From NCBI GenBank assembly GCA_015179025.1, contig WHUX01000117.1:1-64000 (forward strand): a DNA stretch of 64,000 nucleotides. Reading direction: 5' to 3'. Below are positions 46,890 to 61,699 of this stretch, piece by piece. This DNA comes from Terfezia claveryi. Taxonomy: Eukaryota; Ascomycota; Pezizomycetes; Pezizales; Pezizaceae. The translations under genes were made by a program, and so were the position numbers. The first letter of the stretch is position 1. The number at the start of each line of letters is the position of its first letter. The notes below the pieces were generated by a model that was not told where the DNA came from, searched no databases, and saw only the letters and a list, made by a program, of their open reading frames with translations.

Positions 46890-47345
46890 TTCGCTTCTAT
46901 GTCCAGCTTCCTTATAGCCTGTAAATTGCCTGTAACTGCCATGTAGGTAGCCTTTGCAATACTCAGAGTCTCTATTCCTAGAATTAGATTATCTTGAATG
47001 GGTAATTAGCCATATATATTCAAGCTTCATATTCAAGCTTCAAGTAGCCTAGGGTTGGCTTACTATTTACATCCCTCACAAGCCTTTCTTAACAACTCTT
47101 TAACTCATTATCTGATATTAACCTTTGCCTTTTGGCATCTATCGTGTATGCAACTTATTAGCACTATACCCTTGTCCGGCATAAGCTATCTGCGCTCATA
47201 AATTTCTTTTTTATTAAAATAAAAAAAAGGAAAAAAACGGGAATATTATAGACCAGATGGCCTATACATAAGGAATTTTTTGCCAAAATGAAAATCTTAA
47301 GCAAATGGTAGAATTAGCCAACTTTGCTACTCATCTTACATTTCT
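46890..47345. other. AT-rich flank of the giant hAT element
   Basis: Nothing recognised. A poly-A/T rich patch lies at 47200-47250. Confidence 0.4.
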
Positions 47346-47353
47346 AAAGTCCT
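47346..47353. other. hAT target-site duplication, left copy
   Basis: AAAGTCCT; partner GAAGTCCT at 59928-59935 (7 of 8 identical). Confidence 0.75.
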
Positions 47354-47515
47354 TAGTATGCGCCACGGGGCGAGTACAACTCGGACCTGGTCACCAAGAC
47401 CCGCCTTGGCGAGCGAGTTTTGGAGTTTCAACAACTCGCCGAGTCGGCTTTCCTGTCCTACAACTCGACTCGCGATTAATCGGTGATCTACAGATTACTC
47501 GCCAAGCCTACCCTG
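47354..47515 (+). repeat. Left terminal/subterminal inverted repeat of the hAT element
   Basis: Begins TAGTATGCGCCACGGGGCG, ends with the 34-bp block (47473-47506). In between, ACTCG/CGAGT occurs about nine times in both orientations, a clustered subterminal motif of the kind hAT transposases bind (inference). Confidence 0.85.
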
Positions 47516-47642
47516 TTTTCTTTTTTTTTTTTATTGTTTTGTCCCAACTCTTCTATAATCTCATCACGTTTAACACCCTCATTCCATTCTCCTATATCTT
47601 GGTTGTCTTTGTATAACCGATTCTTTCTACCTTCACGGGTTG

Positions 47643-47846
47643 CTTGCACAGTGCCAGATTGCTTGTCTCGTATTCCTTGCACTATCACGGATTGTATGCA
47701 CTGTGCCCGATTGCCTGTCACAGATTCCTTGCACTGTCACGGATTCCTTGCTTCTTTCCCTATGCCAGATTGCCTGTAACGGATTGGTTGCACTGTTACG
47801 GATTGCTTGCACTATCACGGATTGCTTGCACTGTCACGGATTGCTC
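47643..47846. repeat. TGTCACGGA array 1 (left subterminal)
   Basis: Seven copies of TGTCACGGATT-type words (some TATCACGG, TGTTACGG), spaced by TGCTTGCAC-like sequence. Orientation is opposite to the right-end array (59515-59702). Lies just inside the left inverted repeat. Confidence 0.85.
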
Positions 47847-48551
47847 CCACCCACTGACGAACAATACTAGCAATCTATACTACACGGCCAAACAAAATCC
47901 TTACCCAAATATCGGTTAAGAAATATATTAATATACCTTAAATAAATCACAAGACCCGTCACCATGACTATAACAAAAATCCTTCCCACATCCTACAAAA
48001 CCTGAAAAATCCTTCCTAACCTCACTTGAGTTTACCAATAATCCCCCGTAAATCAATTCATACAACTATACAACATAGAAAGAAAAAAAAAAAACTCTTC
48101 AAAGCAAAACCAAATGCCCTAAACGTTCCCTAAAAAAAGCACTTGGCTGGTGGGATGGTGTTCAACTGGTAGGAAGTCGGGTACCGGAACCTAATTCGCC
48201 AAAGATTCCAATATTTACCTTGGCTGTCAGGCATTCGGGTATCTGTGTTCCTTGGTAATTGACATCTAAACCGGAATTGTGTAACATCAGGGCGGTCCCT
48301 CTTCGACCGTTGATGTAAACCTCCCCACGTTGTGGTCGTTCTTGTAACTATATATTTCATCCTCAGTAACAGTGAACCTTCTGCTAGGTGATGTACGGTA
48401 TGCTAACACAAGGGAATGATTATTGGGTACCTGCGCCTCCTCCTCCTGCTACCCCTCCGCCTGCTACTGCCCCTACCGTTGCTGCTGCTTCTCCTCCTCC
48501 TCCTACCCCTGGTCCTGCTCCGGCTGCTGTTGCTGCTACTACCACCGCCCC
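47847..48551. other. Intergenic or uncertain coding sequence downstream of the H3-like gene
   Basis: The minus strand is open at 48360-48130 (76 aa, MKYIVTRTTTTW...) with a GTAAAT donor-like site after RMPDSQ, so an exon is possible. 48420-48551 is the C/T-rich strand of GGA/GCA repeats reading antisense to the H3-like C-terminus. No confident gene. Confidence 0.3.
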
Positions 48552-49357
48552 TTATCCTCCCCCTGCCCCTGGTCCTGCTCCTGCTGCTGCTGCTGCTGCT
48601 GCTCCTCCTCCTCCTGCCCCTGCTGCTGCTGCTGGCCCTCCTCCTCCGGCTGGTCTCGGTACTGCACGGCGTCCTCTTTTTGCTTTTTGGGGCATTCGTC
48701 GGCTCACAAGAGGTACATGTGGAAATGCCCCCGGCACATTACCCCCGGCCAATATATTCTCCTGAATTTTATGCCATAGTCTAACATCCCGCTGTAGGAT
48801 TGTTTGTCTATTATGTGTTTCACCGCCTTGTGTTGCAATCAGGTTCACCGCTTTTTCCGTATTCATGATTAGTCATATTTGTCCGTGATAGCATCCGTGA
48901 CAGCATCCGTGACATATTTTGACTTACTGGTGAAATACTCATGCATATATGCTTCCGACACCTCCTGTATGGCATCTGTTGCCCTCACTTGGATATGCTC
49001 CACATTATTCCGATCTATGAACTGCGAGTATTTGTCGTTATTATCCCTATTCACATCTTGTACAATCTCCCTGCACAGCCTGCGGAATGCAATCTTCGGA
49101 AATATTAGGTCAACGCTTCTCTGTTGATTCCTAATCTGACGTACGAGGCTGACTGATAATACAGTTAGATTAGTCCTTTTTACTTCATGGAATGGAATGC
49201 TTCATGGAATGGAATGCTAACGTCCTTGTGACCGCTTTCTTATGGTTTTTGATGCCACCGCTTTTTGGGGGGGCACGACTGATTTTATATTCCTAGGGAC
49301 TTGTGACCTCACTGGTTGCCCGGGGTTTTTCTTCGGAACCTGCTTTGTTCTTACCAT
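48552..49357 (-). CDS. Histone H3-like protein, three exons, 219 aa
   Basis: Exons 49357-49222, 49152-48928 and 48850-48552; introns GTTAGC..TATCAG (69 bp) and GTAAGT..AAAAAG (77 bp). Phases match and 660 bp divides exactly. The tail begins MVRTKQVPKKNPGQ, keeping R2, T3, K4 and K9 of H3 but with Asn at S10. Residues 46-79 (LSLVRQIRNQQRS..PKIAFRRLCREIVQD) match H3 alpha-N/alpha-1 (ALREIRRYQKST..RKLPFQRLVREIAQD). ATDAIQEVSEAYMHEYF matches alpha-2. ILQRDVRLWHKIQ matches alpha-3 and keeps D123. Loop 1 is about 14 residues and loop 2 about 4 residues longer than canonical H3. A Gly/Ala/Pro-rich tail (from about residue 165) replaces the usual end. A nucleosomal or centromere-like variant role is inference; the loop-1 extension is larger than in CENP-A. 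Confidence 0.85.
48885..48915. repeat. TCCGTGACA array 2, within intron 2 of the H3-like gene
   Basis: Three units (GTCCGTGATAG, ATCCGTGACAGC, ATCCGTGACAT) at 12-bp spacing, inside the 77-bp intron 48851-48927. Confidence 0.85.
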
Positions 49358-50097
49358 TCTTATATGTTAGCTGGTTAAAGGAGGCGATGAACTTGGTGAC
49401 CTAGGGGCGATAGTGATGATCTTATACGAGACGAAGCAACACAGAGCGTTGTGGGGATCCAGCCCTAACTATCAAACAATGAATCCAAGTTTGCCTGCAT
49501 GTTCCCTCAAGTTAGCTTAGATACATCGATAAAGGAAACCCGACAAAGGAAACGCGACAAACGAAACCCGACAAAGGATATCGACAACTAGCTGTTAGGC
49601 TGTTAGTCGTGTCACAATTAAGCTGAACAAGCATCGTTATGGCAGATTAACTCACCTTTTGCCAAATTCCCCCTGGGGACTGACTCATTTTGGCCCCCTT
49701 AACAGGGCCGCATATGGGTTACTTTTGCCTGCAGGTTGGCTGGGATTACCGGAGGAGACCAGACAAGCTGGGAGGCGATATATACTAGAGTATATATATA
49801 TACCTATCTGTCTCATATGCAACCTTAGAACACCGAGGGACTAGTGCAAGCCGACTCGTGAGTTGTACCCCAGTCTAAGCCTGCACCACTAGCCTAATAT
49901 ACCGGGCTTGTGCCAACCAGACTATACCTTAAGTACTCTATTGTCCACCTAGCGACTAGTCTATACTAACCTATTGCTGTATCCAAAAGAACAATAAATC
50001 AACAATCCTGACCCACAATGATATATCAAACAACCAATACCAAACATTCCATCAGACGACAAGGAAATAGAGAAATAATTGCTGGACAACATAGGGA
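49358..50097. other. Intergenic region between H3-like gene and next cargo gene
   Basis: Probable promoter region of the minus-strand H3-like gene at its left. A short tandem AAAGGAAACCCGACA-type repeat occurs at about 49530-49580 (four units). 49659-49844 is open for 61 aa on the plus strand but unconvincing. No other gene seen. Confidence 0.4.
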
Positions 50098-50144
50098 TCT
50101 GTGACAAAATATAAATTCCGTGACAAAGTGTAAGCTCCGTGACA
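50098..50144. repeat. TCCGTGACA array 3
   Basis: TCTGTGACAAAATATAAAT, TCCGTGACAAAGTGTAAGC and TCCGTGACACC at 19-bp spacing, in intergenic DNA. Confidence 0.8.
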
Positions 50145-50185
50145 CCCTATACGTGGTCGTTATTCATTTTGTTCTTCTCCCTCGA

Positions 50186-50345
50186 CATCATCCTCTCCTT
50201 CACCCTCTTCATCCTCTTCATCCTCTTCATCCTCTTCATCCTCTTCATCTTCTTCATCCTCTTCATCCTCTTCACCCTCTTCATCTTCTTCATCCTCTTC
50301 ACCCTCTTCACCCTCTTCATTCTCTTCATCCCCTTCTTCCACTTC
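50186..50345. repeat. CTTCATCCT microsatellite/minisatellite
   Basis: About 18 units of CTTCATCCT or CTTCACCCT. On the minus strand one frame reads Glu/Asp-rich (EEDEEDEE), possibly an acidic tail joined by splicing to the gene at its right. Plus-strand Leu/Phe or His/Pro readings are shadows. Confidence 0.75.
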
Positions 50346-50381
50346 ATTCTCCTCAATCCCCTCACATCCTCGTAATCATCA

Positions 50382-50831
50382 TCATCTGTGTGCTCGGGAT
50401 AAGTCCTGGGGTGAATCGCCACCAAGATGAGGCAATCCTTTTTGACGTAGCCTCGATGCTGGCCATAATGGAGTTTCGATTACGCTATCCTTTACCGAAT
50501 ATACCTTGGCATCATCGTTGGAATCAGTAAGCTCGGCCTCAGCATCAGATGATGAAAGGTCGTCCTCTAGAACCTGGCCATCGCTTTCATCCTCGGAGTC
50601 CTATGCTATGGTGAATAATATATCACACTTCTGAAGGGAGAGATACATACGGGTTCAATATCCTCAACTGCATCACTTAAACAATCTTCCGCACCCCCTT
50701 CAGCTATTTCCATTTCCTGTATGATCCGATCAGCTATGGCAATTGCATCGTCCTGTGCATGTGGCTGTTCAATTGGGCCCTCGAACCGTGCGTATGCTTG
50801 GCGTGAAATGGGCTCAACACTAACAACGACG
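50382..50831 (-). CDS. Probable downstream exons of a cargo gene (acidic protein part)
   Basis: The minus strand is open as VNEFSVVVSVEPISRQAYARF, then GPIEQPHAQDDAIAIAD, to DAVEDIEP. Next is a canonical 50-bp intron (GTATGT at 50650, ..CATAG ending 50601), then DSEDESDGQVLEDD, AEAELTDSNDDAK, ending ...QDLSRAHR at TGA 50382-50384. It lies directly downstream of the 51486-50842 frame but in a different phase, with no convincing intron between, so the join is unresolved (frameshift or a separate gene). Strongly acidic. Confidence 0.45.
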
Positions 50832-50841
50832 CTAAACTCAT

Positions 50842-51486
50842 TTACTGGCTTTTTCCCGTTTCTTCCAAATCACCTTCTGGAATTGTAAATGCCAGTATAT
50901 TATCACCTTCGCCTAGCTCAAGATAAAACCTCTTCTGCGCTTGGGAGAGCCCATACCAGCGATATAAAATATACGCCTTCTTCCGAACTAACATTACCTC
51001 CCAGGTCTTTTGGACAAGTCGTTCGAACTTGCCGCGTTGCACATCACTGAGCTGATTCCTCTTCGTCCCAATTGGTGCACCGGTAACAGTGGCATGCTCA
51101 CTCTCCGCCACGCCAGCTTTGAGAGCCCTGTTAACTTTTTGGCGCTTCCAGTCCTTGGCTCGTTCGAACGCTAGAAGTGGACCCAGCAATCTTTTCTGAG
51201 TTTCCCGGATTTTTCTGGTGTGTGGATTGGTTGATGTTCCCCAAACTTTACGACCCCCACTAAACTCTTTGTCTGGGTCGAATTCTTTTGAGCCCCAAGG
51301 AAATTCCGCATACTTCTCATATGGGTTTACTGGCGTAACTGGGGCTGGGGCAGGCGCGGCTAGGATAGGCGTGACTGGCACAGTTGTCACAGAAGTCTTT
51401 CTCCGTTTGCGTTTATCTGTTGTTCGATTCCCGGATGTTGTGTTCCTCTTCGATGGCGTCTTCTTTTTCTGTACGGGGCCTACCAT
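50842..51486 (-). CDS. Basic nuclear-looking cargo protein, about 214 aa
   Basis: Start chosen at 51486 (MVGPVQKKKTPSK). The open frame extends upstream to 51675, but that part is the TCCGTGACA array read as VTDG repeats and has the look of an intron (donor GTATGTGC at 51677, acceptor ACAAG at 51532). Residues 7-35 are Lys/Arg-rich with TTDKRKRRKTS, a likely nuclear localisation signal. Then a Pro/Ala stretch, PYEKYAEFPWGSKEFDPD, RKIRETQKRLLGPLLAFERA, and WEVMLVRKKAYILYRWYG. No family recognised. Another exon may lie upstream (ATG at 51893, MQVAGGKITDGDI...). Sits between other cargo genes of the hAT element. Confidence 0.55.
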   Translation of the reverse strand: MVGPVQKKKTPSKRNTTSGNRTTDKRKRRKTSVTTVPVTPILAAPAPAPVTPVNPYEKYAEFPWGSKEFDPDKEFSGGRKVWGTSTNPHTRKIRETQKRLLGPLLAFERAKDWKRQKVNRALKAGVAESEHATVTGAPIGTKRNQLSDVQRGKFERLVQKTWEVMLVRKKAYILYRWYGLSQAQKRFYLELGEGDNILAFTIPEGDLEETGKSQ

Positions 51487-51550
51487 TGTGATCCCTTGCT
51501 TTGATAGTCTGTTTTTTTGGCTACACGCTTTCTTGTCAGATCTATGGACG

Positions 51551-51633
51551 TCCTGGACACCGTCCGTGACACCGTCCGTGACACCGTCCATGACACCGTC
51601 CGTGACACCATCCGTGACACCGTCCGTGACACA
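51551..51633. repeat. TCCGTGACA array 4, in the upstream intron of the basic protein gene
   Basis: Six 12- to 13-bp units of GTCCGTGACACC (one with CCATGAC) in a candidate 146-bp intron (51532-51677). If translated on the minus strand it gives VTDG repeats. Confidence 0.85.
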
Positions 51634-51677
51634 GCCCTTGGAGCACTTTGGATCACGCACGACCTTGGAGCACATAC

Positions 51678-52226
51678 CTGCAGAAATGAGGCCTTCTAAC
51701 CGGCGCTGGCGATAGCCAATAGTGGGTATTATACTGGACGCAGCGTGAGACTTCTACAATTCAGCGAATTACACTATCTTTCCAATTCAGGCAACCCGCA
51801 AGGACACAACCTTTGAATATTCTGAGGCCAAGTTATGTGGGTTAAAATGTCTGTGATGTCTCCGTCAGTAATCTTTCCACCCGCGACTTGCATAGCTGGT
51901 CTCCGGTTACAGAACTTAAAGCACTTACCCCTGAATTATCGTGAGCACAATTTATGTGGGTTGAACTGTCAATGTTTGTTGTGAGAAATGAATGAGATTC
52001 TCAGATGCCTCACAAGTTACGGCGAGTTGAAGTGAACAAAGGGGCAAATTGAACAAAGGGGGAAATTGAACAAAGGCATGCATTCATTCTTTGTATGCAA
52101 GCAAACGATCGAGACTACAAGCAAACTTGGATGTCACGAACCGAAAAAGGAAAATGTGACTTGTATTACTACTAAGCGAGCATGTGTCACTAAGCGCATA
52201 GATGCATTCCAAATAAACCAGATTTA
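51678..52226. other. Upstream region of the basic protein gene
   Basis: A roughly 60-bp imperfect direct repeat (around AACCCACATAA, at about 51840-51790 and 51970-51915 on the minus strand). Candidate small exons (MQVAGGKITDGDITDIL at 51893; RQRRLEGLIS ending at donor 51677). The plus strand 52066-52464 ORF overlaps the next gene antisense and is not supported. Confidence 0.35.
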
Positions 52227-52754
52227 TTATTTCTTAAAATTCATGGTTATAGGGCCAATATGGGCAATATGGATATTTGAACAGCCAGGCCCGATAAGAT
52301 GCCCTTCCATTGAGCTGACCATCTCAGGCTGTCTACCTAGACCTGCCCTCCTTTTTTCCCTCCGCTTCCGATCGCGAGCCCTTCGTTGCTTGCGGAGGAG
52401 CCGCTGTTTAGCGTCCATAGTCCTGAGGGGAGCAACCTCATCCCCATCCTCATCAGGCAAATGACTTATTACTCGCAATGGGGAACGGGGCTTCACTGGG
52501 CAGAAACCAGAAGGGGCGGGGTCTAAAATCATGGGACGTTCTTGGAAGGCAGAAGCAGATGTAATAAATTGGGATAATTCATATTGCGTGCTTGGGACGG
52601 GCTTCTCATTCTCCTTGTTCTCCGGCTGCTCGCTAGGAAAATCGTCTTCAACTTCCTCACCATCTGTAGGTGCTTCGCTTGGGGTGGCAGGGACTTCTAC
52701 TGGCCTGCGAGACTGGTAGCGCCGCGGATATCGGTTCCTAAGATCACTAGAGTA
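52227..52754 (-). CDS. Cargo protein exon(s), Arg/Lys-rich, incomplete model
   Basis: The minus strand is open from a good acceptor (CTAAT...TTTTACTCTAG, ending at 52755) to the stop at 52227. It reads SDLRNRYPRRYQSRRPVEV, EEVEDDFPSEQPENKENEK, FQERPMILDPAPSGFCP, LRKQRRARDRKRREKRR, ending TMNFKK. Upstream, 53129 starts MHTNSSTGIPEQSMAPR followed by a GTATGA donor, but I could not join the parts in frame. The overlapping alternative reading WTEIGAIAVWWAHHL..NFTLVILGTD (about 52840-52720) also looks coding. Function unknown; basic region suggests nucleic-acid binding. Confidence 0.4.
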   Translation of the reverse strand, partial: YSSDLRNRYPRRYQSRRPVEVPATPSEAPTDGEEVEDDFPSEQPENKENEKPVPSTQYELSQFITSASAFQERPMILDPAPSGFCPVKPRSPLRVISHLPDEDGDEVAPLRTMDAKQRLLRKQRRARDRKRREKRRAGLGRQPEMVSSMEGHLIGPGCSNIHIAHIGPITMNFKK

Positions 52755-53228
52755 AAATTCGGATTAGCCGCAGGCTTATAACAAGGTCCTGTTGTTTTCA
52801 AGTGATGTGCCCACCACACCGCTATAGCGCCTATTTCTGTCCACTGGAGCCTTAACTATTTTCTACCACTACAAGCCGCGGTGCTTTTGGCACGTGCAGT
52901 TGCCTATGGCTTCCAAAAGCTCAGTCCCCAGGGAGCAATGAAAATACGATCAGAATCTATCCAGTGCAACCGGTCAATTGGGCAAGCCCATTAAGCCCAG
53001 AATCGCAAATACCAAGATTACGCGGGATAACTGCAAAACGATGATATTGGGCAAGAAACTAAGTATGAGAAGTTCATACCTTGGGGCCATGCTTTGCTCT
53101 GGGATTCCTGTGCTCGAGTTGGTATGCATAGTGTTGTTCGGTGTGTGAGATCTTGAGGATGAGGATTACGGTAGTTGAAGAAGTAGCGTAGTGATTGCTG
53201 TTACTGTAGTTGAAGGAGCAGCGAGGAC

Positions 53229-53459
53229 ATGCGGATTTTATCTACCATTGCTATGGCCACTATCTGGCTATGGTCCACCCTCCAGCCCCTTGATGTCTCT
53301 ATTGCTAAAGTAAAGGAGTCTCAGAAACGAGATAAGACTATGCAACTTAGAGCGAAGAAAAAAAGCCAATACCCGATCGGTATGTGGCTGGTCATTACAT
53401 GTGGAGGTATCTTCTACACGATTGGGAGTTTGATACGGTTGGAATCACCCGGCGGTTAG
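53229..53459 (+). CDS. Small possible membrane protein, 76 aa
   Basis: MRILSTIAMATIWLW..., a charged middle (KVKESQKRDKTMQLRAKKK) and a hydrophobic C-terminal segment (GMWLVITCGGIFYTIGSLI). The stop TAG lies at 53457-53459, just before the 53470 repeat array. No family recognised and no supporting splice sites, so it may be chance. Confidence 0.3.
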   Translation: MRILSTIAMATIWLWSTLQPLDVSIAKVKESQKRDKTMQLRAKKKSQYPIGMWLVITCGGIFYTIGSLIRLESPGG

Positions 53460-53469
53460 TTGGTTGTCT

Positions 53470-53857
53470 TGTCACGGATTGTTTGTCTTGTCACGGACTA
53501 GTTGACTTATCACTTTGTTGTCTTGTCACGGATTGACTGTCTTGTCACGGATTGGATTGTCTTGTCACGTACTCGTTGACTTGTTAGTCGGTTGGCACTT
53601 GACTTGTCACAGACTGATCGTCTTGTCACGGACTTATCACTGAGTGATTGTGTTGGTACGTACTGGTTGACTAGTCTGGTTGCACTACCCCTCGTAGTTG
53701 TCACGGACTAGTTGACTTGTTAGTCTCGATCAGACCCTCGTAGAGGTTGACTTGTGAGGAGGGTGTTGTGCCAACCAGACTATTGACTTGTCACGGACTA
53801 GTTGACTTGTCACGGAATAGTTGACTTGTCACGGACTAGTTGACTTGTCACGGACTG
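53470..53857. repeat. TGTCACGGA array 5 (largest)
   Basis: About a dozen TGTCACGGA words, most with GACTWGT or CTTGT spacers (TTGACTTGTCACGGACTAG), in minus orientation relative to TCCGTGACA. Contains GTGCCAACCAGACTAT, also seen at about 49911-49926. Confidence 0.85.
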
Positions 53858-54517
53858 GTCACTGCTGAGCAGTTTGGTACTTGCGGTTATCCCAAGCAGG
53901 CGTAGGTATTTCGTAGCATTACCGAATATGGTCACATACCGTAGAGCTCCAGTTATTCGGTAGCGTAATTTCAAATTGGGCGGCATACTTAAGTAGTGTT
54001 TCTGTTGAGGCTTAACTAAGCAACTTCACCCAACAGGTATAGATTTCACAAGCTAAGCAGCATTAGCCACCAGATCTTAGCACACTACTGGGTATGTAGG
54101 CCAGATTGAAATAAGGCTACTGAGTAACTAGTATGTACCGATCTAAAGTAGAATAAAGAGGTACGTAAACAGGATACTGTATCCACTGGCGAACAACGAT
54201 CCTTGTCAGTTTAATGACATAGGCCGAGCTTATGCAGTAAAGGTGATGTCCGAGTGCAAAACAGGTGGTGGTAACATGCTCACTGACTTGCTAATAATGA
54301 TGTCTGCAGCGAAAGTCAGAGAACTGACAAGGATCGTTATTCGCCAGTAGATGCGGTATTACAATATCCAGATAATTCCTAGAATAGGCAATAGTCATCG
54401 AATATGAGCAACGAGTTTTTTCTTTTTTAAAAATGAAAAATAAAAAATAAAATAAATGAATAAAACTATATATATATATAGCATGTAGGTATTGCCATTT
54501 CATATTAGCCTAACAAT
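53858..54517. other. Intergenic region with a long inverted repeat
   Basis: 54171-54212 and 54319-54370 form an imperfect inverted repeat (core ACGATCCTTGTCAGTT against AACTGACAAGGATCGTT) with about 106 bp between, able to form a hairpin. TATATATATATAG at 54468-54481 is about 38 bp before the next start codon and may be its TATA box. Confidence 0.5.
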
Positions 54518-55561
54518 ATGGCGGAGAACTATTACAACCCGGATGATGAAGAGTCGTTTGAACGCTTCAGAGTGTTGTGGGAGCAGGACAATGGACTACA
54601 ATATTTCCTGAGCCTGGGTAGCAGTGAATTGGTAAAATTTGAGGCTACGCTGTTGGTTATGGAACGATTCGACCCAAGCAGGATTGAGTCTCGAGTAGCA
54701 GCCCAAGTACTCCTTGAGCTGATCTGGATAGGTCGGTACCACTTACGCCCTGGGCCACGTCTACTTGGGATCCATTTTACCTAGACGACTACACTCTTTA
54801 CGATTTATTGTGGGTTACTCTTTTCAACTTTTACCTGACTCTCTGCCGACCAACTACCAATGGCATGGGTGCGTTATCCTGGGTATATGCGAAAATTGTC
54901 AATTTCCATCTGTAAGTTGACACTGGGCCGAAGAACATCTGAGCCGTAACTTACCTTATTCTAGGTGCTTTCCGAGACCCATCGAATACCAGACGCCTTG
55001 GTGTCTCGACGTCGTGTATTTGTGCCCCAACCATGGCACCCATCGCCCAGAATAATAGTACAATGTTGTGGGGAGCGCATCTCGCTTCTACCTTCCCGAA
55101 GGCATGTTCTTGATGTTGCATCTAATCACAATGTCAGGCTAACTCCATGTAGACCTCCAGAGATTATCAACTTCTACGCAATGCCCGACTGGACTTGGAG
55201 ATGCTCTTTACTACAATGGAACACTCCCACATCTAGCGAGAGCGACACGGACGTGGAAGTGGATATGATTGCGGACAATGTTGAAGAGTGTGCAGTGGAT
55301 TCGGAGTATAGTGGTTCCTCAGGCGCATCCTGCTCAACCAATAGTGAAAGCTTTGGCTCTCCAAGCGAGCTCTGGGGGTCGTCTTCTAGTTTGGAAAGCT
55401 TACAAGCTTCAGAAGCGTCAGAAGCGTCAGAAGCCTCAGAAGCCTCAGAAGCATTGGAAAATGACGATTGGAGTACGCATTGGCCTGCGCGGAGGATTGC
55501 GGCTTTGGATTGGAATTGGGTTTGGTGTGCAGTAGATGCGCAAGGGTCGGCCAATAACTGA
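54518..55561 (+). CDS. Three-exon cargo protein with acidic Ser/Glu tail, 313 aa
   Basis: Exons 54518-54735, 54785-54911 and 54965-55561. Introns GTACCA..CCTAG (49 bp) and GTAAGT..TTCTAG (53 bp). The spliced length of 942 bp is in frame, and joining gives ELIWIGRRLHSLRF and ENCQFPSVLSETHR. Starts MAENYYNPDDEESFERF; the middle has CVILGICENCQ and IVQCCGERISLLPSRR. From about residue 230 it is acidic and Ser-rich with (SEA)n repeats (55409-55450). I recognise no family; a nuclear or protein-interaction role would be a guess. It lies 353 bp upstream of the transposase on the same strand. Confidence 0.7.
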
Positions 55562-55682
55562 CATTTCTTTCCTACTGTATCCTTACTTGTGTAACCTTGT
55601 ATACAACGTTGAGTTTTTGAATTGAAGAGGCACTGCAAGTACCTATGGCATTGGATATGCGCCTCTCGAAGCCACCCACTTT

Positions 55683-55800
55683 TCCGTGACAGAAGTGGTT
55701 TTCCGTGACAGAAGTGGTTTTCCGTGACAGAAGTGGTTTTCCGTGACAGTAGCGGATTTCCGTGACAGAAGTAGTTTTCCGTGACAGAAGTCCGTGATAC
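55683..55800. repeat. TCCGTGACA array 6, between cargo gene and transposase
   Basis: Six units of TTTCCGTGACAGAAGTGGT (19 bp) with small changes, in the 353-bp gap upstream of the transposase start. Confidence 0.9.
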
Positions 55801-55914
55801 TGTCCCCTCTGTCCTAGAGAGTTAATAAATATGTTCAATTCCCTGATGTATTGCTTGACCAGTCCACCAACTACAACAGCCTGAAAGTATCAACCGCCAA
55901 CCCCTTTTACCAAT

Positions 55915-58900
55915 ATGTCTATCTCTCCAAACGTCCTGGTCCCTTCATTTGCGATAGATTCGTCCCTCACCAGGATTCTAGGGGGTACTGCGTTCAAGTG
56001 GGAGGCCGAGAAGTCTGCCTGTTTCACAGAATGGTGGGAGACGACCGAATGGGCCGGCAAAGTCCGTGACAATCTTGCCAAGGACATGCTGAATCGAAAC
56101 AATATTAGCCCACCACGATGGGATTCCAAACTGCGAACGGCAATGCACTGGGCTCAATTCGGTCAAGGCGCAAAGGTCAGTAGTGGAGAACCTTTCATAT
56201 ATTGCTTGGGTTGCAACAGTTCGTTACAGCACCCGAGTGCATTCAACTTGGGTACGACACACATGAAATCACACCTGAGCTCTGGGAGATGCCGCGCCGC
56301 AACTGGGCGAAAGAAGGAGGATATTGCCAACATGTTTGTGAGGGTAATTATATAATCCGTGCCAATGCAGAATACGCAGACTGATATTATCCGTAGGCTG
56401 CAACTACTACTGCTATACAAGTTCCTCAATTTAGTGATGATGTATTTCAACATGAACTGATGAAAACGGTCATTGCATCCAACCTACCTTTCCGGACAAT
56501 CGAGCATCCACAATTCCACCGCCTCCTAAACCTTCTCAGGCCTCGAATAAATATCCCCAGTGCAACTACACTTCGGCGTAGTATACATCATTATGCAGCG
56601 GAAATTCAAGCGAAGCTCAAGAAAAGCCTTCCAGACGATACATTGCTTCACCTCGCCACTGACTGTTGGACCTCACCTAATAAATTAGCATTTATGGGTA
56701 CAACACTCCACTACATAGACAAAGAATGGCAAGTGCGTCAACATACTATCGGATTCCAATTCCTTGGAGGGGAATCTCATAATGCAGTACAACTGGCCAA
56801 TAAGCTAAGCCAAATAATCCGGGACTTGGGTATCACTAGCCGGGTCTTAGCTATTGTCTCAGACAATGCTAGTGTCAACATAGCACTGGCCAAGCATTTA
56901 CAGGCAAATGTATTCTGTCCAAAGTGGAATGCGGAGCAATATAGACTTCCCTGCCTCGCACATGTTATCGCGTTGGTGAGCAACCAGTTTATGAAAGAAC
57001 TTAAGTCAAGCCCAGATAATGATGACACTATCTCATCCGCTCCTCAAGTGGAGACTTCAATCAAAGCACTGCAAGGGTATGCGCCAGGTACATTTGCGCG
57101 ATCAGTATGCAAGGTTAGTCATATTTGCTCTGCAATAACCCCGTCACAGAATTCCACATGTCACGGAATTACACAATGTCACGGAATTCCACATGTCACG
57201 GAATTCCACAATGTCACGGAATCCTATCCCCCAATCCCATGTGCTAACAGTTTTCCAGGTTCGGGAGCTGTGTAAAGCTATAGTGGCTAGTCCTCAACGG
57301 TTGGCACAATTCAAAGAACTCCAAAATGACACTCCCGTGCCAATGGGCCTCATACAGGACGTCAGAACTCGGTGGAACTCCACCTTTGACATGCTTACGC
57401 GAGCATTGCGACTACAGTCATACATTGAACAATGGATCAGTCTGACTACAACTGAAGGAAAGTATAGCCTATTGTGGCTGAGTAAAGAAGAATGGGCCCA
57501 AGTTCAGGAGGCTATAATTTTTCTGAAACCGCTCTCTGATTATACACATGCTATTTCCACAGGCCAGCATGCGACTATACACAACGCGTTATTCATCTAC
57601 AACGACATTTTCGACCACATCGAAAAACAACGCAAACGTATACGCAAACTTCCAGCCAGCGCGACGTGGGCACCAGGATTTTTGTGCGCAACGAAAGGCT
57701 GTCACCTCATATTGCAGAAGTATTATTCGAGAACGGAAAAACAATCACTCATCTACAATCTAGCGACTATCCTGGATCCATCTAAGAAGTTATCCTTGTA
57801 CGCGGATTGGGGAAATGTCTCGGTACAGGATCCTACCATGAATCAGGAGGCTGTTGACTGCATACCATACACAGAATATTACCAGTAAGTATCAATTCTA
57901 CGAACGTTATGGAGTACATTCCGTGACAACAGATGCATCCGTGACAACAGATGCATCCTGACAAAGATGATCCGTGACAACAGATGCATCCGTGACAACA
58001 GATGTATCCGTGACATTATGAAACGAATGAGAATCTGACCTTATTGGGTACTTAGAGTACAGTTTGAGGAATATTTTGATATCAACTACGCCAGGTACGC
58101 ACCGGAGCCCCAGGCTCAGAAGAGTCGCCTCGACGATTCAGAGCAATCCTACATCATGCGTCGACTACAAGAGCGGACAGTGACCAAATCAGAGAATATT
58201 CCGGAGGTCAAGAGATACTTAACCAGTGGTCTGGCCATACTAGATGGGCAGTGTCCCCTATCCTGGTGGAAGGTTCATGCCATTGAATACCCGACGCTAG
58301 CACGAATGGCAAGGGACATATTGAGTATTCCACTGACATCTGTGGCTGTTGAGCGTATATTCAGCGGTGCTCGAGATATTTTGCCTTACCGCCGGAACCG
58401 AATGGGTCACCAGATGATCACAGCGCTAATGTTGACGAAATCTTGGGACTCGATACACGCAAAATATACAGAACCAGACCCTGAGAACACTCCTGCACAT
58501 GTGGAAGAAGGATTAGCTGATCATGATGAAATTGATGTGAGCCAGGAGAGACAGGCTCTCAGATATGACGCAGAATTCCTCTGCCGCATGATGCCAGTCA
58601 CTCTAGATGGACCATCAGGAAATGGTGATACGGTGTCAGAGTATGAGAGTAGCGTGGAGGGAGAGGAAGAGTTTGAGGGAGATGATCTTGATGTGGGAGA
58701 TACAACTTCTCAGATTTCTAGCCCATTCAACAATTTCAGTGCGCAGTCAGCGGGAGGAATTGGCTTATTCCAAGGCAGCCTATTGAGGGAGGAAAGAGGG
58801 ACCCCAACACCCTGCACCCCACATCGCGGGACTAAGCGCCCTGCCTCTCCATCCGTCAACCTGACGCCTTCAATGGCAACGAGGCTCCAGAAAAAGTTAC

Positions 58901-58932
58901 GGCCCACTCAGCGTAGGAATTACAAAGTGTGA
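55915..58932 (+). CDS. hAT-family transposase, four exons, 880 aa
   Basis: Exons 55915-56337, 56397-57113, 57259-57884 and 58056-58932. Introns of 59, 145 and 171 bp with GTGAGG/CCGTAG, GTTAGT/TTCCAG and GTAAGT/ACTTAG ends. The sum of 2,643 bp stays in frame. BED-type finger C97, C100, H116, H120. RNase H-like core with D230 (ATDCWTS), D297 (VSDNAS), CLAH motif 327-330 and RTRWNSTFDML. The dimerisation region PLSWWKVHAIEYPTLARMA, IPLTSVAVERIFSGAR gives the third acidic residue, E688. The acidic/basic tail ends TQRRNYKV. These are the standard parts of hAT cut-and-paste transposases. No frame break is visible, so it may be active. Introns 2 and 3 are long because they hold TCCGTGACA arrays. 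Confidence 0.92.
57149..57222. repeat. TGTCACGGA array 7, in transposase intron 2
   Basis: Five units of TGTCACGGAATTCCACA (about 17 bp; first is CGTCACAG), fully within intron 57114-57258. Confidence 0.9.
57920..58016. repeat. TCCGTGACA array 8, in transposase intron 3
   Basis: Five units of TCCGTGACAACAGATGCA (18 bp) plus one damaged unit, fully within intron 57885-58055. Confidence 0.9.
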
Positions 58933-59514
58933 GCCTGCATACTTGAGGGGGCGCAAACCGAGGTAGGTATGGTCAATTATCCTTTGTTCATTGTTTTTTT
59001 CCTTTGTCCTTTGTACCTGAGTTTTGCTTTTTCCTATTAGCTTCCCTTGTATGGTGGGTTTCTTTTTGTGCGTGGGTTTCCTTAATGTGTTGTTTTTTTG
59101 GTTGAATTGTGATTATTATGACGAGCGACACCAGGGTGGATTAGTTCTCATGATGAATCCGCGGTTGATACTCTTTTTTATTTTTTTTATTTTGGTCATT
59201 GATTACTTACGGGATGTAAATTGAGTTTGGGGAGAATGGGAATAATTCACGATGTGGAACTGTGGGCACTTCTTGGGTGGACGTAGGAATCTTGAGAGCA
59301 TTTATGTATGAATTATTATTAAGATAGGGCGGATGGAGGGTTTAGGGATTAGAAGCAAACGTGAGAAATTTGGGTGCAAGGAAAAGGATAACATGGGGAC
59401 GAGTAGGTAGGACGTTTGATATAGAATGTGTGGACGTATGGCAGCACAAACAGAGCATAGAGAACGTGAGAGAGAAATTTGAAAGAATGGTTCTAGAAAT
59501 CGTGACAGCAGAAG
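58933..59514. other. 3' region of the transposase gene
   Basis: T-rich stretch (58985-59110), no further gene recognised. Confidence 0.4.
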
Positions 59515-59702
59515 CAATCCGTGACTAAGAATGGTGACATTGGCAAAAACCATACAAAGGGACAGGAACGGGGTTTGGTGGGATCGGTGCCATGCTGGAA
59601 GACGAAACGAGCGATCCGTGACAAGACTGGCAATCCGTGACAAGACTGGCAATCTGTGACAAGAGTGGCAATCCGTGACAAGACAGGCAATCCGTGACAA
59701 GC
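59515..59702. repeat. TCCGTGACA array 9 (right subterminal)
   Basis: Six units, mostly ATCCGTGACAAGACTGGCA at 19 bp. Relative to the left array (47643-47846) it is inverted: left reads TGTCACGGATTG, right reads CAATCCGTGACA. Confidence 0.9.
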
Positions 59703-59784
59703 CGTATGCACGGACGAATAGAGGAAAGAACGGAAAACCCTGGACTTGGCAAATGCACAAGTGTGAACGAGGTTAGTAAGGGAT

Positions 59785-59927
59785 CTTGGCGAGTAATCTG
59801 TAGATCACCGATTAATCGGCGAAGTGGTCCGAGGCGAGTTGCAGTAGGCAGAGACCGAGGCGAGTCGATAGCCGAACGAGTTGTAAGGGCCAGAAACTCG
59901 GACCGACTCGCCCTGTAGCGCACACTA
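59785..59927 (-). repeat. Right terminal/subterminal inverted repeat of the hAT element
   Basis: On the minus strand begins TAGTGTGCGCTACAGGGCG and ends with the 34-bp block (59818-59785). ACTCG/CGAGT motifs recur between. The order of motifs matches the left end but the middle is diverged. Confidence 0.85.
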
Positions 59928-59935
59928 GAAGTCCT
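59928..59935. other. hAT target-site duplication, right copy
   Basis: GAAGTCCT; partner AAAGTCCT at 47346-47353. Confidence 0.75.
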
Positions 59936-60027
59936 CTTATTGATATATGCAAAAGGTGACTAGAGGTCGAAAGTAATATTAGTTTCAGGAGAATAACTAG
60001 GATCAGCTCACAGTTAGGATAAAACTC

Positions 60028-61699
60028 TCACCTAGACTCAATACTCAATGCTAACTCAAAGGTATTTATAAGTCCCTTAAATCGATCTAGGTTGTCCTTG
60101 ACTTCCTGCTCTTTGAACGGCCATATAATAACCCTTCCAATGTTTTTTGCACCTTGTCCTGAAATCCGCTCATACAATTTAATCGATGAGTGCACAGATT
60201 TAAGTAGATCGCTGGCGGCCTTGATTGTATCTGGTGTAATCACTTCAGAGATCCTTTGCTTCGAGCCCTAGGTTTGTACTATAGAGCTAGTATTATTTGC
60301 ACTTTTGAGGACAAGTTCATCGATCTAACCGAGGACAGCTTCAAGTCTAGATATCTCACTCAATAGTTGCTTCAGTGCATTTGGACTGTTTCGAAGGGAT
60401 GCAATATATATGTTCTGGGCTGCTCATGGGCATCGGCTGCCCATGGGCAGCATACCCACTATGCCAGCCATGGGAAATTTAAATAATTACCCAATTCGGT
60501 GTATTAATAAAGTACTGATTTACTAGAAAAAAAGAATTGATAATTTCTTAGTGACTGCAAAGGATTCATTGATTTCCCAGTCGATTAGACCCCCCTCTAA
60601 CATTCCAATTTGGTTCAGCTAGAGTAATATAGTCATGATCTATTGATACTTTTGTATGTTAATAAATTAAGCATTTCAGATTATTCTTAAAGTATCGGCA
60701 ACAACAATTAGAGTAGAAGTTTTCGAAACACCAGTAGTTATAGATGCTTGGTAAACTGTGGTTTACTGAGCAGTTAGAGTATCTAAAATATCAAACTCTA
60801 AGCTGGTAAGGTCAGTAGTTGGGTAAAGGTTATCAGGTTTAGTAATATCAAACTACAAATATATGAGGTTTGTTGTAGCAATATGCCATTTGATCTCCTA
60901 TAACACTATAAAATACCATCTACCTGTTGTATAATTCTAGGTAGAACCTGCTTCATTTTGGTTTAAAATTAAAAACTTGGAGCTTAGCAATCTACATTAA
61001 ACAGTACTTATTATTAAGAAAGTACTGCTTTGCACCTGACCTGGATTTTATAAGTGAGGAATAGTCTGGATTTTTCTAGTATAAAAATTAATCTTGCAAC
61101 AAAATGTAGAGAAAAGATTTTATAATTATGATTGCTCCAAATTTCACTGAATTCTACACAGCATATCAATATTCAGCATAAGATGGTCAATATAGCCTGA
61201 GCAATAAGGCACTATCAATAAGAACCCCTACAGATAAAAAACTAAGTAATTTCCAAATACCCATTGGATAGGGTTGTGGATTTTTAGGGCAGCAGTAAAC
61301 TCAGTATCCTCTTCTATATTCCATTTATCATCAGGGGTGCAGTGATGGGTTGTTAGTATCACCAGTATATACTTCACCATCTGGAGGGCTTGGGGTAATT
61401 TTTCTGGAATTCTTGCTTGTTCATGAAATATCTGCTGTCTACTAATCAACAGGAAGGGTATATGATGTGGATAGGGCAGTCAAAATAACTTCTTAGAGTG
61501 TTTTTTGAGTGTCGCAGAATGTTTTGTTTGATTGAGATTTACTAAATTGAGGAATTATATTAATTGCCTGTGACCGGCACAGTGGGTATGCCGCGGCTGT
61601 ACTGCCCGCCAGAACATATGCATAACCTTCTATAAGAATCGGCCTAGCAAGCAACAGTAAACCTGCAATGCTAGTAGCAACAGAGAGTGGATTAGCCAT
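60028..61699 (-). pseudogene. NLR/STAND-type gene start (Helo-like N-terminal domain), broken
   Basis: Minus strand 61699 reads MANPLSVATSIAGLL then EGYAYV, the typical opening of fungal Helo-like/STAND N-terminal domains. It resumes on the other side of a 1.2-kb insertion at about 60411 with YIASLRNSPNALKQLLSEIS, RLEAVLG.IDELVLK, ITPDTIKAASDLLKSV, DNLDRFKGLINTFELAL. Two TAG stops occur (about 60328 and 60272). After 60028 a GTGAGAG donor and a CTCTAG acceptor suggest an intron, and the giant hAT element then lies within the downstream part. The family works in heterokaryon or microbial recognition (family knowledge); this copy is dead. Confidence 0.6.
60412..61615. mobile_element. 1.2-kb TIR element inside the NLR-type gene
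   Basis: Ends GTTCTGG...CCAGAAC, with longer imperfect TIRs sharing GCATACCCACTRTGCCRG. It interrupts the reading frame between EGYAY and IASLR. Flanks ATATATAT and ATATGCAT could be a damaged 8-bp duplication (6 of 8). The left end has a hairpin GCTGCTCATGGGCA..TGCCCATGGGCAGC. The interior is AT-rich; one open part (61449-61228, 73 aa, minus) has no recognised domain, so it is probably non-autonomous. Confidence 0.6.

What the first reader, a model, noticed from the sequence alone, without database searches (positions are those of the whole stretch)
47354..59927. A 12.6-kb hAT transposon with cargo genes
Inverted termini (TAGTRTGCGC), a 34-bp identical inverted block 120 bp inside each end, an 8-bp target duplication with one mismatch, and an apparently intact hAT transposase define one element. 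hAT elements are normally 2.5-5 kb and carry only the transposase, so 12.6 kb with several spliced genes is exceptional. Terminal structure and gene models are read directly; single-unit mobility is inference.
Basis: partly seen in the sequence, partly recalled or inferred. Interest (0 to 1): 0.95.

Follow-up and report, generated by a model that had tools for sequence, protein, structure and literature searches.

The report
Jumping gene carrying its own histone
A 12.6-kb mobile element in a truffle-like fungus moves as one unit and carries, besides its transposase, a strongly altered histone H3 gene and other long-conserved genes, which suggests that it shapes the packaging of its own DNA.

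Summary
Confirmed: 47354-59927 is one hAT-superfamily transposon. The genome (contig lengths point to Terfezia claveryi) holds other end-to-end copies; 5 of 7 both-end copies have identical, mutually different 8-bp flanks, the window copy 7 of 8 bases. Four uninterrupted paralogous stretches show the unfilled target. 106 further H3-like loci besides two host genes were found; 70 of 108 have gene B just upstream. Old subfamilies keep transposase, D, C, B and H3. H3 exon 2 is under purifying selection, dN/dS 0.07-0.19 in 11 pairs; transposase 0.06-0.09. A 9-bp word, TCCGTGACA, occurs 41 times in the element and 0 times in the other 51.4 kb, 40 of 41 outside exons. No copy examined is wholly intact: gene B is frame-broken here, the transposase has stops in 8 of 8 others. 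H3-bearing hATs are already published in Dothideomycetes, read as passive capture of host H3. New: the five-gene set, its age and selection, the arrays, another fungal class. Likely role, inferred: anti-silencing chromatin, working like VANDAL/VANC.

The parts
47346..47353 (.). left target-site duplication AAAGTCCT
47354..47375 (+). left terminal inverted repeat, 22 bp, 3 mismatches to the right one
47473..47506 (+). left arm of the perfect 34-bp subterminal inverted repeat
   Evidence: pair I11
47683..47840 (-). left subterminal array of the TCCGTGACA word (2 exact, 5 with one mismatch)
48552..48850 (-). H3 exon 3, end of the histone fold and Gly/Ala-rich C-terminal tail
   Evidence: model by inspection of frames, spliced, end; Pfam Histone 6.1e-12 for the spliced 219 aa
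48882..48914 (+). word array in H3 intron 2
48928..49152 (-). H3 exon 2, most of the histone fold
49222..49357 (-). H3 exon 1, tail MVRTKQ...
50098..50144 (+). word array between B and H3
50147..51486 (-). gene B: conserved first exon 50872-51486 and downstream frames ending in a polyacidic stretch; frame closes earlier here than in other copies, and the exons after the first are inferred
   Evidence: relatives
51563..51631 (+). word array upstream of B
52227..52740 (-). gene C, main exon (basic C-terminal half); earlier exons uncertain
   Evidence: relatives in C355 and C27
53470..53854 (-). word array between C and D
54517..55561 (+). gene D, at least two coding pieces; exon borders uncertain
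   Evidence: relatives in C355 and C27
55683..55786 (+). word array between D and the transposase
55915..58930 (+). hAT transposase, exons 55915-56343, 56397-57113, 57259-57884, 58056-58930, 882 aa
57159..57220 (-). word array in transposase intron 2
57920..58015 (+). word array in transposase intron 3
59518..59699 (+). right subterminal word array
59785..59818 (-). right arm of the perfect 34-bp subterminal inverted repeat
   Evidence: pair I11
59906..59927 (-). right terminal inverted repeat
59928..59935 (.). right target-site duplication GAAGTCCT

Best explanation
The segment is one cut-and-paste hAT transposon of an old lineage that carries a resident chromatin module. Shown: it is one mobile unit; a divergent H3 gene and genes B, C and D travel with the transposase through old subfamilies; H3 is under purifying selection; a fixed 9-bp word sits in arrays in its non-coding parts. 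Inferred: an element protein (B, C, D or the transposase's BED-like finger) binds TCCGTGACA; B, with its acidic tail, handles the element's H3; nucleosomes with this H3, whose tail does not keep the ARKS context of K9 and K27, keep the element's regulatory DNA from being silenced long enough to move. I put the anatomy at about 0.95 and the anti-silencing function at about 0.4.
For: Whole copies, flanks and empty sites. H3 identity. B upstream of H3 at 70 of 108 loci, 61 of them at 1.38-2.17 kb. Same genes in same order in C355, four of them also in deep clade C27. dN/dS of H3 exon 2 0.07-0.19 in 11 pairs, transposase 0.06-0.09 in two stretches. Word: 41 in the element, 0 in 51,426 other bases, 1 of 41 in an exon; genome pairs 746 against 1 for the reversed control; arrays at six matching places in C355. 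Copies show excess C>T at CpG and CpA, as if methylated or RIPped, so there is silencing to escape. The arrangement of a 9-base word in introns, borders and terminal parts is that of VANC21 targets (PMC5735166, passages).
Against: No expression, binding or chromatin data. The DNA-binding factor and the function of B are unknown; B has no family or fold match. Decay is heavy: 8 of 8 other family-A copies compared have stops in the transposase and 5 of 8 copies have stops in H3, so protection, if any, does not last. Within family A pN/pS of B is 0.81. Six of 16 usable B pairs have dN/dS 0.42-0.97. Upstream of B the A and C355 arrays still align, so there spacer turnover is not shown.
Confidence: 0.4

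Rival explanations
1. The module serves transposition itself: the arrays are transposase or co-factor binding sites that organise ends and interior or regulate the transposase, and H3 and B help to build or protect that complex, without an anti-silencing role.
For: Arrays lie beside both ends in mirrored orientation, minus at the left and plus at the right; the transposase N-terminus has a BED-like C-x2-C...H-x3-H pattern by inspection; hAT transposases such as Ac bind short subterminal repeats (recalled).
Against: Most exact words (34 of 41) lie in the interior, in introns and gene borders, not beside the ends; a histone gene is not needed for transposition in any hAT I know (recalled).
Confidence: 0.27
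2. The element H3 acts in trans on host chromatin in general, as a dominant-negative or competing H3 that loosens silencing everywhere, and the arrays are unrelated.
For: Divergent tail and loop 1 with key fold residues kept; more than 100 H3-like loci.
Against: Does not explain the element-specific arrays or the constant pairing with B.
Confidence: 0.13
3. Passive transduplication: a host H3 gene was captured and copied along, as published for Dothideomycetes.
For: It is the published reading (PMC3538342, PMC6710886); many H3 loci here contain stops.
Against: dN/dS near that of the transposase and the same gene set in subfamilies whose silent sites are nearly saturated; the same exon read out of frame gave ratios above 1 in 14 of 15 pairs; three exons and a companion gene.
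Confidence: 0.05
4. The arrays are neutral minisatellites that spread within the element by slippage; H3 and B have some other selected role.
For: Tandem units, variable copy number.
Against: The 9-bp core is fixed while spacer and unit length (12, 14, 17-20 bp) vary between arrays and mostly between A and C355; 40 of 41 avoid exons.
Confidence: 0.1

Closest known systems
H3L-bearing hAT of Pyrenophora tritici-repentis (Manning et al. 2013, PMC3538342; passages and section 20 part 1 read)
   Same: hAT transposase, a further ORF of unknown function and an H3-like gene between TIRs; H3 belongs to neither H3 nor CenH3 there
   Different: about 5.6 kb, 10 nearly identical long copies, one extra ORF, read as recent capture; here 12.6 kb, four extra genes, old subfamilies, selection, word arrays. 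Homology of the parts could not be tested: no sequence at hand
H3-bearing hAT of Pseudocercospora fijiensis and relatives (Dhillon et al. 2019, PMC6710886; abstract and parts 1-4 of 7 read)
   Same: about 9.5 kb, 8-bp TSD, hAT (DUF659) plus one or two H3-like stretches; an insertion of 16 residues in one H3-like copy (place not stated in what I read), here about 14 in loop 1
   Different: there intronless, all copies RIPped, no other domains or repeats found; read as captured housekeeping transcript
VANDAL21 with VANC21 of Arabidopsis (PMC5735166, passages read)
   Same: a 9-base word in tandem arrays in introns, gene borders and ends; element with genes beyond the transposase
   Different: a different element family (MULE, recalled) and plant; no histone; its binding and anti-silencing are shown by experiment, here not
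KDZ transposons with TET/JBP genes in mushrooms (recalled; the original paper was not returned)
   Same: fungal DNA transposons linked to a chromatin- or DNA-modifying gene
   Different: other transposase and other cargo

Membership tests
hAT superfamily | hAT transposase with C-terminal dimerisation domain | tested here: met
   Pfam PF05699 E 3.2e-20, 72.1 bits against cut-off 21.4
hAT superfamily | 8-bp target-site duplication | tested here: met
   5 of 7 both-end copies perfect, window 7 of 8, one copy none
hAT superfamily | short TIRs | tested here: met
   22 bp, 3 mismatches here; start TAGTG/TAGTA; the YARNG rule for hAT ends is recalled
hAT superfamily | catalytic D-D-E | tested here: inconclusive
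   candidate residues seen by eye in the translation; not checked by structure or assay
histone H3 family | histone fold related to H3 | tested here: met
   Pfam Histone 46.3 bits against 26.4; the best PDB sequences listed are H3 (60 of 144 shown)
histone H3 family | H3 tail ARTKQTARKS... | tested here: inconclusive
   window tail MVRTKQVPKKNPG, C355 tail MAGTKQRARNVKT: TKQ kept, ARKS contexts not
CENP-A (centromeric H3) | closer to CENP-A than to H3 | tested here: inconclusive
   34.5% to the host CENP-A-like protein, 33.0% to host H3, which are 68.3% identical to each other; no broad tree made
H3-bearing hAT of Dothideomycetes (common descent) | homologous transposase, extra ORF and H3-like protein | not testable with these tools
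   those sequences are not in the collections at hand; architecture alike by the papers' text
VANDAL (MULE) with VANC | MULE transposase | tested here: not met
   transposase is hAT; so it may work like VANC but is not a VANDAL
histone chaperone (gene B) | known chaperone fold or H3-H4 binding | tested here: inconclusive
   no Pfam or credible PDB match, poor models (mean pLDDT 53.3 and 57.8); only the acidic tail and constant pairing with H3 speak for it
Starship giant elements | DUF3435 tyrosine recombinase as first gene (recalled) | tested here: not met
   none among the ORFs scanned

The most novel reading that the evidence does not exclude
A transposon that brings its own nucleosome system: an element-specific H3 is placed by a dedicated partner protein (B) at element-coded 9-bp docking arrays, giving element-only chromatin that the host's silencing machinery cannot read. 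The H3-bearing hATs of other ascomycetes would then be relatives or relics of one old self-packaging lineage, not accidental captures of a housekeeping gene.
Probability: 0.25. Interest if true: 0.95.

Novelty: new variant of a known kind. Interest (0 to 1): 0.78.

Why it matters
Host chromatin holds mobile elements in check. An element lineage that has kept a histone H3 gene under selection, beside a constant partner gene and arrays of one fixed DNA word, would be a direct case of a genomic parasite answering silencing with its own nucleosome part. It also questions the published reading of H3 genes in fungal hATs as accidental captures, and it gives a small testable set: one histone, one partner, one 9-bp word.

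Tried and rejected
Two separate small elements at the ends: rejected, whole copies carry both ends around the same contents. Starship-type element: no tyrosine recombinase among the ORFs scanned. Passenger H3: disfavoured by selection and joint inheritance. A protein search with the spliced H3 gave 7 candidates and no hit; that search needs shared exact words, so it is weak evidence. Fold of B: two predictions, both poor; Foldseek against PDB found nothing below E 1.4; profile searches nothing credible. In one search the frames for genes C and D were out of phase and are not used. In one search the H3 exon was read out of frame; it is kept only as a control and was redone in frame. One search used a wrong sequence for the window (zeros) and was redone; its rows for the loci stand. 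Whether H3 K9 is lost or shifted cannot be settled from the tails. Paper searches. None of the listings describes this element in Terfezia; I saw listings, abstracts and passages only. The 2021 desert-truffle genome paper, looked up under a DOI from memory, is not held, so a mention there is not excluded.
Full report
Where it is. The window is C21:1-64000 of a 72.56-Mb genome in 794 contigs. Two protein records of Terfezia claveryi lie on contigs of 141,316 and 162,729 bases (P0025, P0062), the lengths of C45 and C27 here. So the genome is most likely that desert truffle (Pezizaceae); the name is inference from those lengths.

One mobile unit. Ends, inverted block and near-perfect 8-bp duplication are confirmed. 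Seven places hold both ends with the same contents between them; C773, C54 and C419 are about 98% identical to the window copy in their long aligned pieces. Five of seven have identical and mutually different 8-bp flanks, the window copy has one mismatch, C44 has unrelated flanks. Two pairs of half copies at contig ends share a flank (joining them is inference). Some copies carry extra DNA (C246 17 kb, C98 18.7 kb, C44 19.5 kb). The window's joined flanks match five other places across the junction; the four fetched, all on C21, run through with one 8-bp target, and the A/G difference of the duplication also exists among these paralogs.

The genes. From the left: H3 (-), B (-), C (-), D (+), transposase (+). 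The transposase has four exons, 882 aa. Of 22 relatives found in the large protein set, the best six are Penicillium proteins at 31-34% identity; two basidiomycete ones are at 25-26%. H3 has three exons. The product starts MVRTKQ, has the histone fold (Pfam E 6.1e-12), about 14 more residues in loop 1 than host H3 and a Gly/Ala-rich end. It is 33.0% identical to host H3 (C153) and 34.5% to a host CENP-A-like protein (C773); these two are 68.3% identical to each other. B has a conserved part without known fold and, by inspection of frames, a polyacidic end; relatives in Terfezia boudieri (P0032) and Tirmania nivea (P0069) also end acidic. 70 proteins matched B at E 0.001 or better, among them T. 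claveryi itself, T. boudieri, Tirmania nivea and unnamed metagenome proteins. In the window copy B's frame closes after 303 codons of open frame against 378 in C54 and C419. C and D have no family match.

Old, jointly inherited cargo. The H3 search gave 116 matching pieces. I dropped 11 second pieces of a locus already listed and added 3 loci from the Pfam search: 108 loci, of which 2 are host genes; I did not check each of the other 106 for element ends. For B I kept 95 of 124 pieces, dropping 29 second pieces. 70 of 108 H3 loci have B upstream on the same strand within 8 kb, 61 of them at 1.38-2.17 kb; 69 of 95 B loci have H3 downstream. The 38 H3 misses include the two host genes, loci cut by contig ends and decayed ones. 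Subfamily C355 has transposase, D, C, B and H3 in the same order and orientation at 71-78, 50-52, 34, 59 and 53-55% protein identity, and a TAGTGTGCG end beyond H3; its other end was not fetched. In deep clade C27 transposase, D, B and H3 are found at 32-50, 32, 36 and 35%; there D lies on the other strand relative to the transposase, and a C-like stretch (42%) lies beyond H3, so the order is not wholly kept.

Selection. Codon counts (Nei-Gojobori, own script, stops skipped). H3 exon 2 among C21, C32, C45, C355, C165 and C512, 15 pairs: 11 gave dN/dS 0.07-0.19, three were saturated, and C32-C45 had no silent and a few replacement changes; several of the 11 have dS above 1, where the estimate is rough. 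Four deep-clade pairs on 33-60 codons gave 0.26-0.44. H3 exon 3 (38 codons): 0.13-0.34 in ten usable pairs and 0.57 in one. The out-of-frame control of exon 2 gave 1.29-3.00 in 14 of 15 pairs and 0.42 in one. Transposase C21-C355: 0.09 and 0.06. B: 0.10-0.33 in 10 usable pairs, 0.42-0.97 in 6, all of which involve C204, C25 or C245-C27. D: 0.19 and 0.37. C: 0.35-0.40. Among family-A copies pN/pS is 0.54 for H3 (8 copies), 0.81 for B (9) and 0.60 for the transposase (9), which includes decay after insertion. In that set only the window copy has no stop in the transposase (others 2-14), and 3 of 8 have none in H3. With B broken in the window, none of these copies is wholly intact; the family persists, but which copy is autonomous is not shown.

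The 9-bp word. TCCGTGACA occurs 41 times in the 12,574-bp element and 0 times in the other 51,426 bases; with up to one mismatch 57 against 4; 1 of 41 lies in an exon although 5,193 bases are coding by my rough models; 200 base shuffles gave a mean of 0.075 and at most 1. Pairs of the word 2-20 bases apart number 746 in the genome against 1 for the reversed control; only the first places are listed, so I did not check that all lie in such elements. In C355 arrays occur at six matching places: transposase intron 2, border of D and transposase, border of C and D, upstream of B, between B and H3, and near the end. In five the spacers look unrelated to the window's by eye; upstream of B the two arrays still align (76% over 96 columns). 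C355 has no exact word in H3 intron 2, where the window has two. In C27 the word mostly reads CCCGTGACA (12) or CCCATGACA (11), with one exact copy. Over 207,180 bases of fetched loci there are 421 exact and 212 one-mismatch words; 107 of the 212 are the two CpG transitions and 59 the two CpA-type ones. C>T differences among family-A copies are 0.078 at CpG, 0.037 at CpA, 0.011 at CpC and 0.007 at CpT: the copies are hit by methylation-type and RIP-like mutation.

What it most likely does. The host attacks these elements, yet the lineage keeps a selected H3, a constant neighbour gene and one fixed word through its regulatory DNA. The nearest worked-out parallel is VANC21, which binds a 9-base motif in introns, intergenic and terminal parts of VANDAL21 and causes local loss of methylation (PMC5735166, passages). 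I take anti-silencing by an element-specific chromatin state as most likely (0.4), a role in transposition itself second (0.27). Every step after the anatomy is inference.

Known and new. H3-bearing hATs are known from Pyrenophora tritici-repentis and from Pseudocercospora, Cercospora and Sphaerulina (PMC3538342, PMC6710886). Both papers read them as capture of host H3, and the second reports no other domains in its 9.5-kb element. So this is a new variant of a known kind. New here are the resident five-gene set, its age and selection, the word arrays, and a different fungal class. I found no report of it in the searches named in Tried and rejected.

Noticed in passing
L036 (C27:14900-18300), L037 (C245:1500-4800), L028 (C773:157600-158900): The H3 tail of the deep clade (MPGKQTGRKTIVG) shares TGRKTIVG with the tail of the host CENP-A-like protein, unlike the TKQ-type tails of the other subfamilies; it could hint at a CENP-A origin.
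   Followed up: partly
window 47200-47353 and 59928-60080; L044-L047: The element sits in one member of a dispersed sequence family with at least four more members on C21 and a partial one on C368.
   Followed up: partly
window 48433-48684 and 50163-50370: The Gly/Ala tail of H3 and the acidic tail of B are coded by low-complexity tandem repeats that vary in length between copies.
   Followed up: no
window 54174-54218 and 54315-54359: A 45-nt inverted repeat, 84% complementary with 96 nt between the arms, lies just before gene D (pair I8).
   Followed up: no
L017-L022 (C246, C98, C44): Both-end copies of 17 to 19.5 kb carry extra internal DNA, for example 4.5 kb in C246 between the parts matching 49478 and 49477; probably nested insertions.
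   Followed up: no
L035 (C165:18201-24500): Two H3 genes of different subfamilies (53-56% and 70-82% identical to the window's) lie within 4 kb on one strand, with an element end between them.
   Followed up: no
G000 element copies: C>T differences are raised at both CpG and CpA, as if DNA methylation and a RIP-like process both act in this fungus.
   Followed up: partly
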